Positions 5,461-15,465 of a stretch of DNA of 64,000 bases are shown piece by piece (position 1 is the stretch's first letter; every line of letters begins with the position of its first letter). Made by a program: the position numbers and the translations under genes. The notes beneath the pieces were generated by a model. The model did no database searches and was not told where the DNA came from. It worked only from the letters and a program-made list of their open reading frames with translations. This DNA is from Kiloniella laminariae DSM 19542 (GTDB taxonomy: Bacteria; Pseudomonadota; Alphaproteobacteria; Kiloniellales; Kiloniellaceae), in the NCBI RefSeq assembly GCF_000374005.1, contig NZ_KB893135.1:346625-410624 (forward strand). The letters run 5' to 3'.

Positions 5461-6147
5461 ATGAAATTCATTATTAGTATTTATATTTTTTTGATCTGTT
5501 CTTTTGAGGCAACCGCCGAAACTTATACAGTTAATAACAAAAAAATAACCATAGAGACCATTGATGATTATTGCTTTATATTACCGACTGATGAACCCGA
5601 AAAAAATATATTTGACTTTTATAGTAAGGGTGACAAGAAACCCAGAAAACTTGTTTCCCTATTATTCCCTTGCGATATTTTGAATGCATACAAAATTGAA
5701 ATGGATTCGTTCTGGAAGCGATACATTACACCTCCCCCATTTTCACAAAACTTCATAGAGTCAATTGTAGATTTAAATTTATTAAAGGATGATTATCACG
5801 GACATGAATATTTAGTAAAAGATATAATATGCCCTAAATGGGCTCAAGAACCTCATCCTCTGAGCAAAAATGACTTGAAAAAAAAAGACAAACTCGAATT
5901 ATTAGACCAACAAGAAATGGGCCTTATCTCAATTGGATTTCTTGATTCAGATTCTGAAACTTGTTATTTCGGGATACTTAATAAATTTGTGAATAGTGAT
6001 AAATCTGAGCAGCTACTATTAAAAGTTTACGCTCCAAAAATTCAGGACGGGGTAGTTATTTATCACTACTACAATAGCCCGTATAAGAATTTTCAGTCCC
6101 TAGAAGAATCCGTGAGTACTTTAAAGAAGTTTATAGCTGCACAATAA
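5461..6147 (+). CDS. Exported protein of unknown function on an AT-rich insert
   Basis: No family recognised. A 228-residue product with a signal peptide (MKFIISIYIFLICSF, cleavage near EATAE) and a soluble mature part with several Cys and aromatic residues (YCFILPTDEPE, CYFGILNKF, VIYHYYNSPY). A lysine-rich patch (NDLKKKDKLELL) lies near the middle. Base composition is far lower in GC than the flanking genes and codons favour A/T at third positions, so this gene was acquired. No clear ribosome site precedes the ATG. The frame is long, unbroken and has a convincing export signal, so it is called a gene, probably the cargo of the insertion bounded by the 243-bp repeats. Confidence 0.65.
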   Translation: MKFIISIYIFLICSFEATAETYTVNNKKITIETIDDYCFILPTDEPEKNIFDFYSKGDKKPRKLVSLLFPCDILNAYKIEMDSFWKRYITPPPFSQNFIESIVDLNLLKDDYHGHEYLVKDIICPKWAQEPHPLSKNDLKKKDKLELLDQQEMGLISIGFLDSDSETCYFGILNKFVNSDKSEQLLLKVYAPKIQDGVVIYHYYNSPYKNFQSLEESVSTLKKFIAAQ

Positions 6148-10697: not shown

Positions 10698-11291
10698 ATG
10701 CCAAACCAGAGCCAAAACCAAAACACACCGGACCATTTTATCAGCCTGCTGGCGCGCCTTTCGCGGCTGGTCAATCACGACGGCCATGCCGGAGGGTTAA
10801 AGCCGGCCCAGTGGGATGCCTTGCGGTTTCTGGCCCGGGCCAACCGTTTCTCTCGCACGCCCGGCGGCCTGACCGCCTATCTTGGTGCGACCAAAGGCAC
10901 AATTTCACAAACCCTGATGTCCCTGGAAAAAAAGGGTCTGCTTGAGAAAACCCCCGATCCTCTGGATCGCCGCTCGGTCGCTCTCAGGCTGACTGCTGCC
11001 GGGGAAGAACTGGCCAGCAGCGATGCGCTCACCAGCTTTGGCACCCTCTTTGAAGGCCTGCCCCCGGCAGATCGGCAAAAGCTGGAGGCCGCGCTGGAAC
11101 AGCTGCTCCGGGCCAAACTACAGCGCGAAGGCAACCGTCCCTTTGGCATCTGCAACAGCTGCCGCCATTTCCGCAAAAACAGTGCTCAGGGAAATATAAG
11201 TGAAGGCAAGCCACATTTCTGTAGCCTGCTCAACGAACCCTTGAGCGAAAGCGGCAGCCATAAAATCTGCATCGAACAGGAAGCCGCCTGA
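10698..11291 (+). CDS. MarR-family regulator with Cys-rich C-terminus
   Basis: A 197-residue regulator. Residues 10-145 form the MarR winged-helix domain: LKPAQWDALRFLARA, LGATKGTISQTLMSLEKKGLL (recognition helix) and the wing DPLDRRSVALRLTAAGEE. Unlike ordinary MarR proteins it has a C-terminal extension (about 148-195) with FGICNSCRHF, HFCSLLNEPL and HKICIE, that is four Cys plus His, which looks like a metal or Fe-S site. This may make it a redox or metal sensor. It is divergent from the exported-protein gene with a perfect palindrome between them. Confidence 0.88.
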   Translation: MPNQSQNQNTPDHFISLLARLSRLVNHDGHAGGLKPAQWDALRFLARANRFSRTPGGLTAYLGATKGTISQTLMSLEKKGLLEKTPDPLDRRSVALRLTAAGEELASSDALTSFGTLFEGLPPADRQKLEAALEQLLRAKLQREGNRPFGICNSCRHFRKNSAQGNISEGKPHFCSLLNEPLSESGSHKICIEQEAA

Positions 11292-11440
11292 CCCTCGACA
11301 AAACACTGAGAAAGTCCATCATTGACTCGCCTCGGTCACGATTTTGCTTATAGCGTCCTATTACTCAGCAGGCCATGTCGATTTTGTCGCGTAACTTTCA
11401 CGCTCCAAGGTTCCTTCCGTATCCTCACCCTGCCCATCCA

Positions 11441-12532
11441 CTACTTGGCCCATATGGGGTCGAAAGAGATATTTAGTTCAGACGCAAGTATTCTGGCTCT
11501 TTCTTTTAGATTAGACGAATCATTTGTACCTTGCTGACTTAAGCGATCATACTCTAATAGATCATATGATGAATCAGCATAATTCTCTTCTGCATCCTGC
11601 CTATTTTTTCGAAGCTTTTCACGGAAATCTAAAAGCTTCCGCCTAGAAATTTTATCCAATTCATCAGAAATCATTGCTGATTTAAAAATCAAGTAATAAA
11701 TTGTTAAATTTCCTTGTGCATTTAAAAGTTCATCATTATCAGAAAAAACTTCACACATACAATCGCAGATTTCTAAGCATTTCTGCAAAATACAATTTAC
11801 GTGCTCCGCACCTTCTTCTCTATATTTTTTAGCCATTGCATCTAAATAAACTTTTTTAGTATCTATTAACTTACCATTAACAGAAATACTATCTTCAATA
11901 ACTAAAAATCTAGCAGCGACTTCTTTATGCTGATATCTAGAGTTAGAAAAACGAACCTTATTAATAAAAAGCCTTCCCCCTGACAGCTCTGAGATCGCTC
12001 GGACCATAAATCCTCCAAATGCATTTCGTTTTTCTGCAGCATTTAATGGAGAGGCTTCATTTAGCCGGGCAAACATATCTTCAATTAAATCTAAATCGTT
12101 TCCCAATGTAGACACAGTCACAATCGGTAAAACAAATGAGTCAAATTTCACTCTAATTTTTGGGTATTGCTTTGCAATATCGTTATAGCTCAATCCAGCT
12201 AGCTTGATTGTATCATCACGCTGATATTCAAAATCATTTGATAGATTGAACTCACCCTCAATGAAGCCTCGAATAGTCTCTAAGCGCTGCCTCCCATCAA
12301 TTACAGCGTATTTAATACCCGTTTCTAGAAATTTTTTTGTGTCATACAGGTGAAAGTAAATTTTTGGCAAATCGTAATCATTAAGAATTGAGTCTATTAA
12401 TAATTGCTTCTTATCAATAGTCCAAACGCCCCCCATTCGCTGATATTCAGGATCAAATTTGATTTCATCAATTTCTGAATACAGAAGCATAATTGTGCTA
12501 TTTTTCAACACAGATGTTTCAATGTAACTCAC
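11441..12532 (-). CDS. DUF262 (ParB/GmrSD-N-like) protein, second gene of FRG operon
   Basis: A 363-residue protein with the DUF262 fold at its N-terminus: PEYQRMGGVW (about 28-37), the QLLIDSILNDYDLPKIYF helix region, and the signature IDGRQRLETI (about 78-87) that in this ParB-like family forms a nucleotide-binding or hydrolysing site. NAAEKRNAFGG follows, also typical. The C-terminal half is helical with many Cys (CILQKCLEICDCMCEVF) and charged residues. GmrSD-type restriction enzymes use this domain, but no DUF1524 HNH nuclease is present here. GTG start with GGGGG upstream, overlapping the FRG stop by four bases (GTGA), so translation is coupled. AT-rich codon use marks it as acquired. 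Role in phage defence is inferred. Confidence 0.85.
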   Translation of the reverse strand: MSYIETSVLKNSTIMLLYSEIDEIKFDPEYQRMGGVWTIDKKQLLIDSILNDYDLPKIYFHLYDTKKFLETGIKYAVIDGRQRLETIRGFIEGEFNLSNDFEYQRDDTIKLAGLSYNDIAKQYPKIRVKFDSFVLPIVTVSTLGNDLDLIEDMFARLNEASPLNAAEKRNAFGGFMVRAISELSGGRLFINKVRFSNSRYQHKEVAARFLVIEDSISVNGKLIDTKKVYLDAMAKKYREEGAEHVNCILQKCLEICDCMCEVFSDNDELLNAQGNLTIYYLIFKSAMISDELDKISRRKLLDFREKLRKNRQDAEENYADSSYDLLEYDRLSQQGTNDSSNLKERARILASELNISFDPIWAK

Positions 12533-13281
12533 AACAGCCCCCTTTTAATCGTTTCACCTACACTTGAAAGCTCTGGAAACATTTGAAACTTCCCTAACCC
12601 AAGAGATTGAATTTCTTCCCTTAATTTGGCTCTATTTTCTGCAGGTATAATAAATTTCATCAAATAGGACCCATCAGAAACTTTCTCTATTGGTATTCTA
12701 TAATCATGATGAACGGTAAAAACCCCCATTTGCGCTTGAATTCTTGGATTATTTCTTGTTGCTATTGTAGCTACTGGTAGCGACTGTGTTTTTATCTTTC
12801 CATTTAAACTTTCAGGGGAATAAGTGCTTACTATTAAATCATCTTCAAAGGAGGGGATATATCCCGCCTCATTTGGATCTATAATTCTCGATACAGCATT
12901 TAATTCTGCAGGTCTTAACCTCCACAAGCACGCATCAGTATTTGAGTGAGCTTCCATATCCTCTAACGCAAAATAAAGCCCCACTAATGGGCTTTCGCTC
13001 CAATCTAATAATCTTGTCGGCACCCCATAATGCTGCATTAGGAATAACCAATCGAATGATTCCTTTGGCTGTCGATCAATCAACATCGACGCATTTTGCT
13101 TAAACTTATTAATAAGGGTTGTTTCAGATGGAGGGGTGGATAACCTATAATAACCAGGAATTAAACTCCATTCTACATTAGCATGGCCACGATACCAAAC
13201 AGCCTCAGTGTAGCTCTCTCTATCTTGTTTTTGAATATTAAGAAAATCTTGAATAGAAGATATTGGCTTTTCTTCAATCAC
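12529..13281 (-). CDS. FRG-domain protein, first gene of FRG-DUF262 operon
   Basis: A 250-residue protein with the FRG domain, named for its conserved Phe-Arg-Gly-type motif: VWYRGHANVEW (about 28-38), then LMQHYGVPTRLLDWSESPLVGLYFA (about 81-105 in two parts), the most conserved FRG element. Molecular function of FRG domains is not established, although they occur in defence-associated loci. The GTG start at 13281 directly follows an in-frame TAA, so no earlier start exists; no Shine-Dalgarno sequence is seen. The stop overlaps the DUF262 start. Base composition is well below the neighbours. It probably acts with the DUF262 protein. Confidence 0.85.
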   Translation of the reverse strand: MIEEKPISSIQDFLNIQKQDRESYTEAVWYRGHANVEWSLIPGYYRLSTPPSETTLINKFKQNASMLIDRQPKESFDWLFLMQHYGVPTRLLDWSESPLVGLYFALEDMEAHSNTDACLWRLRPAELNAVSRIIDPNEAGYIPSFEDDLIVSTYSPESLNGKIKTQSLPVATIATRNNPRIQAQMGVFTVHHDYRIPIEKVSDGSYLMKFIIPAENRAKLREEIQSLGLGKFQMFPELSSVGETIKRGLL

Positions 13282-13629
13282 TTAAAAAATCCAATCCAGT
13301 TACATTCAATAGCCAGACGCTATAAAATAGTAGCATCACAATATCTGCAATCCATGATTTTAATCCAGTTAAAAACATCCAGCAGGTCACTTTTTCGCCA
13401 AAGCTTTATTTCTTTGTCACAAATCCTTGCCAGCCACTTGCGCCGTAGATGGAAGAGGTGCAAGCTGGACGCTCTGTACATCTTTTCATCCGCTCCCCGC
13501 CTCTGGCCTTCACGGCTTCCTGGCCTGGGTCTGATCCCGGTACAGCTTCGCTTTTCCTGACGGCCCCCTTACGGCCCCGGTTTTCTGCTTTCTGTTTTCT
13601 TTTTTGTCTCTTGTATCTGTGAATATTAC
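13282..13629. other. Intergenic edge of the FRG-DUF262 island
   Basis: About 350 bp without a supportable gene. The left 130 bp are AT-rich like the FRG gene and probably hold its promoter. Composition rises to the genome norm near 13420, marking the likely right edge of the acquired segment. No tRNA, integrase, inverted terminal repeat or direct repeat was seen at this edge. Confidence 0.5.
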
Positions 13630-14679
13630 ATGCCCCTTCAACTGATTCCGGTCCGCCTCCAGAGCTATTACAGCCACACCCTGCACAGCCGCTGGCACCC
13701 TTATTGGGGGGCAATTCCGGGCAATGTACGCGGGTCGTTGTTGGTATTGCTGGCAGCCCTGTCCGGGGCCTGTATGGGCGGGCTGATCAAGATGATCGGC
13801 CAGCGCATCCCGGTGTTCGAGATCCTTTTTATCCGCCAGCTCTTTGCCGTCAGCATTATTGCCCCGGTGGTGATCCGCAACTGGCGCACCACCTTTCGCA
13901 CCACGCTGTTTCGCTTTCACCTGCTGCGCGGGGTTTGCTCTGGTATTGCCATGAGTGCCGGGTTTACCGCTGTGGTCCACCTGCCGCTGGCCCAGGTCAC
14001 AGCGATCAGCTTTGTCCGCACGCTCTTTACCACCCTGCTGGCGATCATCTTTCTGCGCGAAGTCGTGGGTATCCGCCGCTGGTCAGTCACCATTGTCGGT
14101 TTTATCGGCGTGCTGATTATTATCCAGCCTGACCTTTCTTCCGGCTCGGAAGCGGTCGGGGAAACCCTGCTGACACTTGAAGCCTTTCTGGCGGCAACAA
14201 CGACCTTTGTCCAGGAGCATCTCTATGCCCTGCTCGCCCTGACCGGGGCCTTCTTTGTCGCTGCGGTCATGATTATCCTGCGCAAGCTCTCGCAGGTCGA
14301 CAAACCCTCGACCATTATGGCCTATCAGTACAGCTTCATCACCCTCTATATGATCGGCCCGGCGATCTGGTTCTGGGTGCCGCCGTCACTGACAGATGTG
14401 CTGATTATCGGGGTGATCGCCGCGCTGATGTCGCTGATGCACTGGCTGTATATCCAGGCCTTTCGCGTGGCCGAAACGGTCGCAGTCGCGCCGATGGAAT
14501 ATTCCCGGCTGCTCTTTGCTACCGGCATCGGCATTGTCTTTTTTGGCGAAATCCCAACGGTCTATACCCTGAGCGGGGCGGCGATCATCATCGCCTCAAC
14601 CCTCTACACTATCCACCGAAACGCCCTGCGCAAACGCCAGGACCAGGGGGAAGTTACAGCGACATTTCCTGAAAAATAA
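13630..14679 (+). CDS. EamA-family (DMT) transporter
   Basis: A 349-residue inner-membrane transporter with ten predicted TM helices in two EamA repeats. The first repeat runs about 33-170 (LLVLLAALSGACMGGLIKMIG, FIRQLFAVSIIAPVV, HLLRGVCSGIAMSAGF, ITAISFVRTLFTTLLAIIFL region with the usual Arg/Glu after helix 4, LREVVG). The second runs about 195-335 and includes MEYSRLLFATGIGIVFFGE, the repeat-2 equivalent. Members export amino acids and related metabolites by proton exchange. A 25-residue Arg/His-rich N-terminus precedes the first helix. No operon partner. Substrate unknown. Confidence 0.9.
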   Translation: MPLQLIPVRLQSYYSHTLHSRWHPYWGAIPGNVRGSLLVLLAALSGACMGGLIKMIGQRIPVFEILFIRQLFAVSIIAPVVIRNWRTTFRTTLFRFHLLRGVCSGIAMSAGFTAVVHLPLAQVTAISFVRTLFTTLLAIIFLREVVGIRRWSVTIVGFIGVLIIIQPDLSSGSEAVGETLLTLEAFLAATTTFVQEHLYALLALTGAFFVAAVMIILRKLSQVDKPSTIMAYQYSFITLYMIGPAIWFWVPPSLTDVLIIGVIAALMSLMHWLYIQAFRVAETVAVAPMEYSRLLFATGIGIVFFGEIPTVYTLSGAAIIIASTLYTIHRNALRKRQDQGEVTATFPEK

Positions 14680-14940: not shown

Positions 14941-15465
14941 CTATTGTTCCTGCCAGCCCCACCAGTTCCTGTATTGCAACCGGTCCTTGATCCGGTTCTG
15001 GATCTGGCGCTGGATCTCTACTGACAGGCCATTGCCCGAATTCACGGGGACCAGCGCCAGTTCATCACGCAGTTTGGTATAGCGGGCCTCGAAGTCCCCG
15101 CTCCAGGCTTGTGAGGCTTTGATATCTTCAATCAGATTGGCCAGACCGTGTTTGACCGGGGTGTGGAATTCAACCTGTTCGATGGATTTTTTCAAACGCC
15201 CGCTCCAGTCATAAATCCCCTTGGCCACCGCCCCGATGGTCGAGATGGTGGTCAGGATGGCACAGAGCCAGGCAAAGTCCGGCGAGGCAAGAATACCCAG
15301 CCCGGTTCCCCCGCTGGAGGCGGCCCCGAGCGCGATCAGAAAGTCGATATGCTGCGAGCGACTGGCCAGCCGGTCGTGGCATTCGTGATGATAGTCTATT
15401 TCATAGAGCGAGTTGAGATAGGCACGATAAACCTGATTGATACGCGCCACTTCCTGCGGTGACAT
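14941..15465 (-). CDS. SLATT-like two-TM protein
   Basis: A 174-residue protein whose layout matches SLATT (SMODS and SLOG-associating 2TM effector) proteins: an N-terminal helix with YEIDYHHECHDRLASRSQH leading into two close TM helices (HIDFLIALGAASSGGTGLGIL and FAWLCAILTTISTIGAVAKGIY), then a long charged helical tail (about 95-170) ending WWGWQEQ. SLATT proteins are thought to be membrane-disrupting effectors of nucleotide-signalling defence systems. No SMODS, SLOG or TIR partner is adjacent, so that role is only possible. GGGAG precedes the ATG. It could instead be a general two-helix membrane protein. Confidence 0.6.
   Translation of the reverse strand: MSPQEVARINQVYRAYLNSLYEIDYHHECHDRLASRSQHIDFLIALGAASSGGTGLGILASPDFAWLCAILTTISTIGAVAKGIYDWSGRLKKSIEQVEFHTPVKHGLANLIEDIKASQAWSGDFEARYTKLRDELALVPVNSGNGLSVEIQRQIQNRIKDRLQYRNWWGWQEQ

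What the first reader, a model, noticed from the sequence alone, without database searches (positions are those of the whole stretch)
11441..13281. AT-rich two-gene FRG + DUF262 operon: candidate uncharacterised defence module
Seen: two genes with a GTGA overlap, composition far below the neighbours, FRG motif QHYGVPTRLLDW and DUF262 motif IDGRQRL, inserted between ordinary chromosomal genes. Known: FRG and DUF262 domains each occur in defence-associated or GmrSD-like loci, and DUF262 is the ParB-like half of GmrSD restriction enzymes. Inference: a two-protein system in which FRG senses or modifies and DUF262 acts, without the DUF1524 nuclease. No mobile-element genes flank it.
Basis: partly seen in the sequence, partly recalled or inferred. 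Interest (0 to 1): 0.65.

Follow-up and report, generated by a model that had tools for sequence, protein, structure and literature searches.

The report
Mobile FRG–DUF262 two-gene defence candidate
Two overlapping, horizontally acquired genes form a pair that recurs in distant bacteria and in viral sequences; they most likely make an infection-triggered switch (DUF262) that unleashes an enzyme (FRG) resembling ADP-ribosylating toxins, which would be an undescribed version of a known style of bacterial immunity.

Summary
Window 11441-13281 (minus strand) is an FRG gene overlapping a DUF262 gene by GTGA, GC 0.356 against about 0.56 around it. Neither gene was found in 8 of 8 congeners. The pair recurs, FRG first, in 25 further loci: genomes, a plasmid, viral contigs. 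In 24 full-length pairs the two proteins' distances track each other (Mantel r 0.94). FRG's model moderately resembles ADP-ribosyltransferases; DUF262's resembles BrxU, SspE and ParB. No DUF1524 nuclease is present. More distant DUF262 relatives adjoin other proteins: PD-T4-2 HEPN, Menshen-type ATPase, ThsA-like SIR2; the FRG-linked DUF262s form one clade beside the two clearly SIR2-linked ones. No paper found holds both 'FRG domain' and 'DUF262', but a key earlier paper was not readable. Function, NAD+ use and trigger are untested. Verdict: new variant of a known kind.

The parts
12529..13281 (-). FRG protein, 250 aa, first gene; predicted ADP-ribosyltransferase (ART)-like effector
   Evidence: Pfam FRG 3.4e-25; PADLOC PDC-S15 3.5e-51; AlphaFold2 pLDDT 90.8, pTM 0.88; best VIA-align match TreTu, Z 5.9, rmsd 3.2, 105 aligned; the 50 entries shown are ART-superfamily proteins (identity of several recalled from their names), Z 3.9-5.9
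11441..12532 (-). DUF262 / GmrS-like protein, 363 aa, second gene; predicted NTP-binding sensor or switch; no DUF1524
   Evidence: Pfam GmrSD_N 8.5e-16; PADLOC NsnA 6.7e-29 and PD-T4-2_A 2.5e-16; VIA-align BrxU Z 8.2 (rmsd 9.4, 292 aligned), SspE Z 7.5 (rmsd 7.0, 235 aligned), ParB-N domain Z 6.2 (rmsd 3.5, 96 aligned)
12529..12532 (-). GTGA stop-start overlap (suggests translational coupling)
   Evidence: Sequence; the same 4-base overlap in 17 of 24 full-length pairs, the other 7 between +1 and -2 bases
11292..13340 (.). Stretch that does not align to the nearest relative G002, between the conserved MarR gene and the region before EamA; the acquired segment
   Evidence: DNA alignment ends at 11291 and resumes at 13341; G002 holds two other ORFs there
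10698..11291 (+). MarR-type regulator, conserved flank (not part of the module)
   Evidence: Pfam MarR_2 2.2e-14; 80% identical in G002
13630..14679 (+). EamA transporter, conserved flank (not part of the module)
   Evidence: Pfam EamA 1.1e-20; 91% identical in G002

Best explanation
A two-gene anti-phage module. DUF262, a ParB/sulfiredoxin-fold NTP-binding protein, holds or positions FRG and senses a sign of infection, perhaps phage or modified DNA; NTP binding or hydrolysis switches it. FRG, an enzyme with an ADP-ribosyltransferase-like fold, is then released to consume NAD+ or ADP-ribosylate a target, stopping growth before the phage matures. Shown: the pairing, joint inheritance, patchy distribution including viral contigs and a plasmid, domain identity, lack of DUF1524, and different partners beside DUF262 relatives. 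Predicted: the two folds. Inferred: coupled translation, binding of the two proteins, sensing, switching, NAD+ use, abortive infection.
For: FRG-then-DUF262 adjacency in every high-scoring FRG whose downstream neighbour could be seen; Mantel r 0.939 for 24 pairs, 0 of 9999 permutations as high. Reciprocal in 385 genomes of the class: the 4 FRGs of 210 bits or more and the 4 DUF262s of 353 bits or more are the same 4 loci, own included. Not found in 8 of 8 congeners. Neighbours include DNA methylases, Vsr, HsdM, AbiEii, Schlafen AlbA_2, phage CI repressor and integrase. FRG's model is nearest to ARTs; PMC9503650 assigns Frg to the ART superfamily and suggests it might be a NADase (passages). 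Invariant in 24 of 24: FRG W29, R31, G32, R90-W94, Q184; DUF262 YQR and DG[RK]QR. DUF262 relatives adjoin PD-T4-2_B, NsnB-like and other HEPN proteins and ThsA-like SIR2; the FRG-linked DUF262s form one clade (100/98) whose sister group holds the two clearly SIR2-linked ones.
Against: No experiment. The ART match is moderate: best VIA Z 5.9, below the 7-8 that the tool calls a typical best for models without a clear match; best Foldseek E 0.09. The usual catalytic Glu is not pinned down: Q184 is 24 of 24, E199 is 22 of 24. No test that the two proteins bind each other. Two of four SIR2 partners are weak matches below Pfam's cut-off and lie elsewhere in the DUF262 tree. 16 of 20 FRG places in the class set have no DUF262 within the fetched flanks, and an FRG on a Vibrio plasmid has none either, so FRG proteins also occur without it. 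Neighbours scanned for context were picked by eye.
Confidence: 0.57

Rival explanations
1. Restriction-like reading: FRG senses or marks, and DUF262 itself is the acting nuclease or NTPase against phage DNA.
For: DUF262 is the GmrS half of type IV restriction enzymes (PMC4619093, passages); PMC11980606 (section 26 read) calls the DUF262 protein PtuX a putative nuclease.
Against: No DUF1524 in the protein. DUF262 is the part in common while partners are HEPN, SIR2 or an ATPase. FRG's model is nearest to an enzyme family.
Confidence: 0.15
2. Toxin-antitoxin or addiction pair: FRG is a toxin kept silent by DUF262, serving maintenance of the mobile element, with any phage defence secondary.
For: Overlapping two-gene layout and joint inheritance, ART-like first protein, presence in viral contigs and a plasmid.
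Against: DUF262 is larger than FRG and keeps the DGxQR pocket residues; its relatives match components of reported phage-defence systems. Not exclusive with the best explanation.
Confidence: 0.15
3. FRG is not an NAD+-using enzyme; the ART resemblance is only a common arrangement, and FRG is a binding or adaptor protein for DUF262.
For: VIA Z below 8 may mean only a common arrangement (note); Foldseek E-values are weak.
Against: All 50 entries shown are of one superfamily; independent assignment in PMC9503650; invariant polar residues R31, R90, D93, Q184.
Confidence: 0.12

Closest known systems
PD-T4-2 (from E. coli ECOR65; PMC9519451, one passage)
   Same: DUF262 protein without DUF1524; PADLOC PD-T4-2_A matches 18 of 18 members of A4
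   Different: Its partner carries a HEPN domain (PMC10952713 table passage); where PD-T4-2_B was met here it follows the DUF262 gene (L130, L131). In this pair the partner is FRG and comes first
Menshen (that NsnA and NsnB are Menshen gene names is recalled; one search found no paper with both words)
   Same: DUF262 protein matches PADLOC NsnA over residues 11-351
   Different: Menshen associates DUF262 with a predicted OLD nuclease (PMC10952713, section 6 read); neither protein of this pair matches NsnB
GmrSD / BrxU / SspE
   Same: GmrS (DUF262) domain; VIA Z 7.0-8.2 to BrxU and SspE, with rmsd 5.9-9.4
   Different: No DUF1524 nuclease; DG[RK]QR in place of DGQQR
PADLOC candidate PDC-S15 (FRG)
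   Same: FRG protein matches 14 PDC-S15 models, best 3.5e-51
   Different: 'S' is taken to mean a single-gene candidate (recalled); the DUF262 protein matches no PDC model at E up to 1
ptuXYZ (PMC11980606, section 26 read)
   Same: DUF262 protein without DUF1524 in a candidate defence operon
   Different: Partners are a PtuA-like ATPase and a BECR-fold RNase; three genes

Membership tests
GmrSD type IV restriction | GmrS domain (PF03235) | tested here: met
   8.5e-16, above cut-off
GmrSD type IV restriction | GmrD domain (DUF1524), fused or adjacent | tested here: not met
   At E up to 0.1 the DUF262 protein has only PF03235 and its partner only PF08867; the flanking genes are MarR and EamA
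GmrSD type IV restriction | DGQQR motif, nearly 100% conserved in GmrS (PMC4619093, passage) | tested here: not met
   DGRQR in 16 and DGKQR in 8 of 24; the D, G, Q and R of the pocket are kept
GmrSD type IV restriction | Cleavage of modified DNA | not testable with these tools
   needs biochemistry
PD-T4-2 | DUF262 component PD-T4-2_A | tested here: met
   2.5e-16; 18 of 18 members of A4
PD-T4-2 | HEPN component PD-T4-2_B | tested here: not met
   FRG has no PD-T4-2_B match at E up to 1; flanking genes are MarR and EamA
Menshen | NsnA (DUF262) | tested here: met
   6.7e-29
Menshen | NsnB ATPase partner | tested here: not met
   Neither protein of the pair matches NsnB; flanking genes are MarR and EamA. 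Elsewhere NsnB does adjoin DUF262 (L119, L132)
ART superfamily (FRG) | ART fold | tested here: inconclusive
   Model pLDDT 90.8; all 50 entries shown are ART-superfamily proteins, but Z is only 3.9-5.9 (best: rmsd 3.2, 105 aligned) in a pool preselected by Foldseek. Leans to met; PMC9503650 assigns Frg to this superfamily
ART superfamily (FRG) | Three-part NAD+ site | tested here: inconclusive
   R31 on strand 29-33, strand 91-95 before helix 98-106, and Q184 before strand 186-190 are conserved; no coordinates to measure the site, third residue unclear
ART superfamily (FRG) | NAD+ binding or cleavage | not testable with these tools
   needs biochemistry

The most novel reading that the evidence does not exclude
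FRG-DUF262 is one arm of a modular immune family in which a single NTP-driven DUF262 switch is plugged into interchangeable killers: HEPN RNase (PD-T4-2), Menshen-type ATPase/nuclease, ThsA-like SIR2 NADase, or an ART-fold FRG. The FRG and SIR2 arms would be sister branches that both act on NAD+, two unrelated folds recruited by the same switch for the same end.
Probability: 0.45. Interest if true: 0.75.

Novelty: new variant of a known kind. Interest (0 to 1): 0.6.

Why it matters
If right, it gives a function to FRG, a widespread domain that only 8 papers of the library searched name as 'FRG domain', and turns DUF262 from 'half a restriction enzyme' into a general infection switch with swappable effectors. 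That can be tested directly: the same kind of phage trigger should fire FRG-, SIR2- and HEPN-linked DUF262s.

Tried and rejected
Housekeeping pair: rejected, not found in 8 of 8 congeners, one of them (G005) only 77% complete. Chance adjacency: rejected. A conserved third gene: none seen by eye among the neighbours of the 15 loci listed. Mobile-element ends: one search shows no convincing repeat at the edges; promoter-like sites (5 found, 6.6 expected) and terminator-like sites (3 found, 1.9 expected) are not clearly more than in shuffles. Sequence search against solved structures: no hit at E up to 1 for either protein. NCBIfam: no match for either at E up to 0.1. Foldseek for DUF262: best E 1.2e-3, to ParB. 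Useless calls: 26 (the term matched inside unrelated words), 110 (compared two overlapping alignments of the same family).

Literature (openly licensed papers only): 'FRG domain' + DUF262, 0 papers; Frg + ParB + NAD + effector, 0; DUF262 + ADP-ribosyl, 3, two looked at by passages and one seen in the listing only; DUF262 + SIR2, only the review PMC10952713; Menshen + NsnA, 0; PDC-S15, 1 paper, listing only. 'FRG' does not occur in the texts of PMC10952713, PMC9519451 or PMC4619093, nor Frg, ParB or DUF262 in PMC7159879. Burroughs & Aravind 2020 (PMC7685563), reference 11 of PMC9503650 and cited there for Frg as a potential effector, is not held, so it may already mention this pair.

Dropped rows: L008 (FRG split by a frameshift) and L009 (FRG start missing) were left out of the Mantel test but kept in the DUF262 tree; L040 was left out as a near-copy of L039; L043 and L075 end at a contig edge and could not be judged; L046 has FRG and a DUF262 about 2.9 kb apart, not adjacent, and was not counted as a pair. 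The DUF262 tree leaves out L012, L085, L086, L122, L123 and L128, and loci that repeat a place already in it.

Full report
Observation. Two minus-strand ORFs, FRG (12529-13281, 250 aa) and DUF262 (11441-12532, 363 aa), overlap by GTGA. Pfam supports both well above curated cut-offs: FRG 3.4e-25, GmrSD_N 8.5e-16. PADLOC places FRG in the candidate family PDC-S15 (3.5e-51) and DUF262 nearest NsnA (6.7e-29) and PD-T4-2_A (2.5e-16). GC of the pair is 0.356; its 5-kb flanks are 0.556 and 0.565. In nine other paired loci the pair is also more AT-rich than its locus (9 of 9).

Site. G002, the nearest relative by its EamA protein, has MarR and EamA in the same order, but between them two unrelated ORFs in place of the pair. 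In G007 and G008 the MarR-EamA gap is about 0.3 and 0.7 kb. MarR lies beside EamA in G006 too, and a partial MarR match does in G004. So the junction was seen without the pair in 5 of 8 congeners; near EamA of G001 (about 5.5 kb each side looked at) and G003 (1.5 kb each side) there was no MarR match, and G005, 77% complete, had no EamA match. FRG was not found in any of the 8, nor DUF262. The pair is therefore an acquired accessory segment.

Recurrence. A scan of genome contigs with FRG gave 8 loci, all with DUF262 directly downstream (8 of 8), from records named as Xanthomonas, Hoeflea, Chthoniobacteraceae, Campylobacterota, Duganella, Hydrogenophaga, Stygiobacter and Verrucomicrobia (six are MAGs, whose labels may be wrong). 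A Hymenobacter plasmid adds another. In viral contigs, 9 of 34 FRG loci have DUF262 directly downstream, all with FRG scores of 193 bits or more; the one other FRG above that score, L043, is cut by its contig end, and the remaining 24 score 173 bits or less. Of 9 DUF262 loci there, 8 have FRG upstream and one is cut by its contig edge; 7 of these 8 are contigs already counted and L072 is new. In 398 genomes of the phylum, 5 of 5 FRG places at E up to 1e-40 are paired, own included; of 8 DUF262 places the 5 of 287 bits or more are paired and the 3 of 132 bits or less are not. In 385 genomes of the class, of 20 FRG places the 4 of 210 bits or more are paired and the other 16 are not; of 23 DUF262 places the 4 of 353 bits or more are paired and none of the other 19. 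Unpaired here means none within the fetched flanks of about 1.5 kb. The pair is thus one FRG subfamily tied to one DUF262 subfamily.

Joint inheritance. For 24 full-length pairs the stop-start distance is a 4-base overlap in 17 and between +1 and -2 in the other 7; protein distances correlate at r 0.939 with 0 of 9999 permutations as high. This shows joint travel; it does not by itself show physical contact.

Setting. Twenty neighbours chosen by eye from 10 of the 15 loci listed were scanned. They include C5 DNA methylases (4 loci), Vsr (2), HsdM with DUF3800, Schlafen AlbA_2, AbiEii and a GHKL-type ATPase; in viral contigs phage CI repressors (L035, L038), integrases (L035, L039), and an S24 repressor with a baseplate protein (L072). 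Three of the 20 had no match. This is what defence cargo looks like, but the choice was not random and there was no control set.

FRG. The AlphaFold2 model is good (pLDDT 90.8, pTM 0.88). Foldseek's first 23 rows are ART-superfamily proteins, several recognised by recall of their names, though with weak E-values, best 0.09. In VIA-align all 50 entries shown are of that superfamily (TreTu Z 5.9, rmsd 3.2, 105 aligned; cholera A1 Z 5.7, rmsd 3.1, 118; KptA Z 5.3, rmsd 3.0, 84). A Z below 8 can mean only a common arrangement, so this supports rather than proves the fold; PMC9503650 assigns Frg to the ART superfamily and suggests it might be a NADase (passages). Of the positions counted across 24 paired FRGs, W29, R31, G32, Q83, H84, R90-W94, F104, R180, Q184 and F188 never vary. 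R31 sits on a strand (29-33), strand 91-95 precedes a helix, and Q184 precedes strand 186-190; reading these as the ART site is inference.

DUF262. The model (pLDDT 87.9, pTM 0.57) aligns best to BrxU (Z 8.2, rmsd 9.4, 292 aligned) and SspE (Z 7.5, rmsd 7.0, 235), then to ParB-family and sulfiredoxin domains (Z 4.3-6.2; ParB-N Z 6.2, rmsd 3.5, 96). Y30-R32, D79, G80, Q82, R83, F154 and R156-N158 are invariant in 24 of 24, and position 81 is R or K. No DUF1524 is present.

Other partners. Among the 19 unpaired DUF262 relatives of the class set, two have an NsnB-like ATPase directly downstream (L119, L132; 3.8e-104 and 2.5e-87), and seven a HEPN-like protein: four above Pfam's cut-off (L124, L125, L127, L129), two matching PD-T4-2_B (L130 1.4e-58, L131 6.5e-51) and one weak (L126, E 0.0036). 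The neighbours of the other ten were searched only for FRG and one kind of SIR2 and looked at by eye. Of 33 plasmids with DUF262 hits I read eight: two have a ThsA-like SIR2 directly downstream (Pfam 1.2e-26, 6.8e-25; PADLOC ThsA 1.6e-31, 5.5e-26), one a weak SIR2-like gene upstream with a small ORF between (L110, below cut-off), one FRG, one lies between a DNA methyltransferase and a helicase (L012), and three have no partner recognised. L084 also has a weak SIR2-like gene directly upstream (PADLOC 1.3e-6, Pfam below cut-off).

Tree. In a 49-row DUF262 tree all 26 FRG-linked rows form one side of a branch (100/98, 100% of 200 bootstrap trees). Their sister group (97/90; joint node 99/93) holds the two clearly SIR2-linked rows, L107 and L109, plus L116 and L117, which have no recognised partner. 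The two weakly SIR2-linked rows, L084 and L110, lie elsewhere. Seven label changes suffice for the five labels, against 21.2 on average in shuffles. Long branches make the deeper order unsure, and the label 'other' partly means 'not scanned'.

Reading. DUF262 is the part in common and several of its partners are killing enzymes, so DUF262 is best read as the sensor or switch and FRG as the effector. That the nearest DUF262 relatives with a clear partner sit beside SIR2 proteins fits an NAD+-directed role for FRG, but this is inference. [quoted passage not shown]

Novelty. Each half is known to a defence database; the pair was not found in the searches listed under Tried and rejected, which cover only openly licensed papers, and the 2020 paper cited for Frg as a potential effector could not be read. 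I file it as a new variant of a known kind.

Noticed in passing
window 14941-15465 (-): SLATT-like protein: Pfam SLATT_4 E 0.011 (below cut-off), PADLOC CBASS 2TM effector 2.9e-4; a 90% identical copy lies at the same place in G002; no partner gene recognised.
   Followed up: partly
window 5461-6147 (+): Second AT-rich island (GC about 0.3) with one 228-aa ORF that by eye starts with a signal-peptide-like stretch.
   Followed up: no
L031 7607-8383 and 8408-9031: In G002 two side-by-side ORFs, by eye similar to each other, one with a Gly/Ser/Cys-rich tail, occupy the site that holds the pair in the window; the site may be a variable spot.
   Followed up: partly
L107 1858-4855; L109 2983-4885: DUF262 directly followed by a ThsA-like SIR2 gene on plasmids, in L107 also with a PAPS-reductase-like gene upstream; a possible separate defence module.
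   Followed up: partly
L124-L127, L129: DUF262 followed by HEPN-like proteins that do not match PADLOC's PD-T4-2_B; possible divergent relatives of PD-T4-2.
   Followed up: partly
plasmid collection, e.g. hits H18-H40: Remote FRG proteins (about 28% identity in the Klebsiella rows) are common on enterobacterial plasmids: 378 plasmid records in all hold an FRG match, 260 of them predicted conjugative; partner genes of these rows not examined.
   Followed up: no
L008 5992-6724: FRG split by a frameshift while its DUF262 is intact; could be decay or an assembly error.
   Followed up: no
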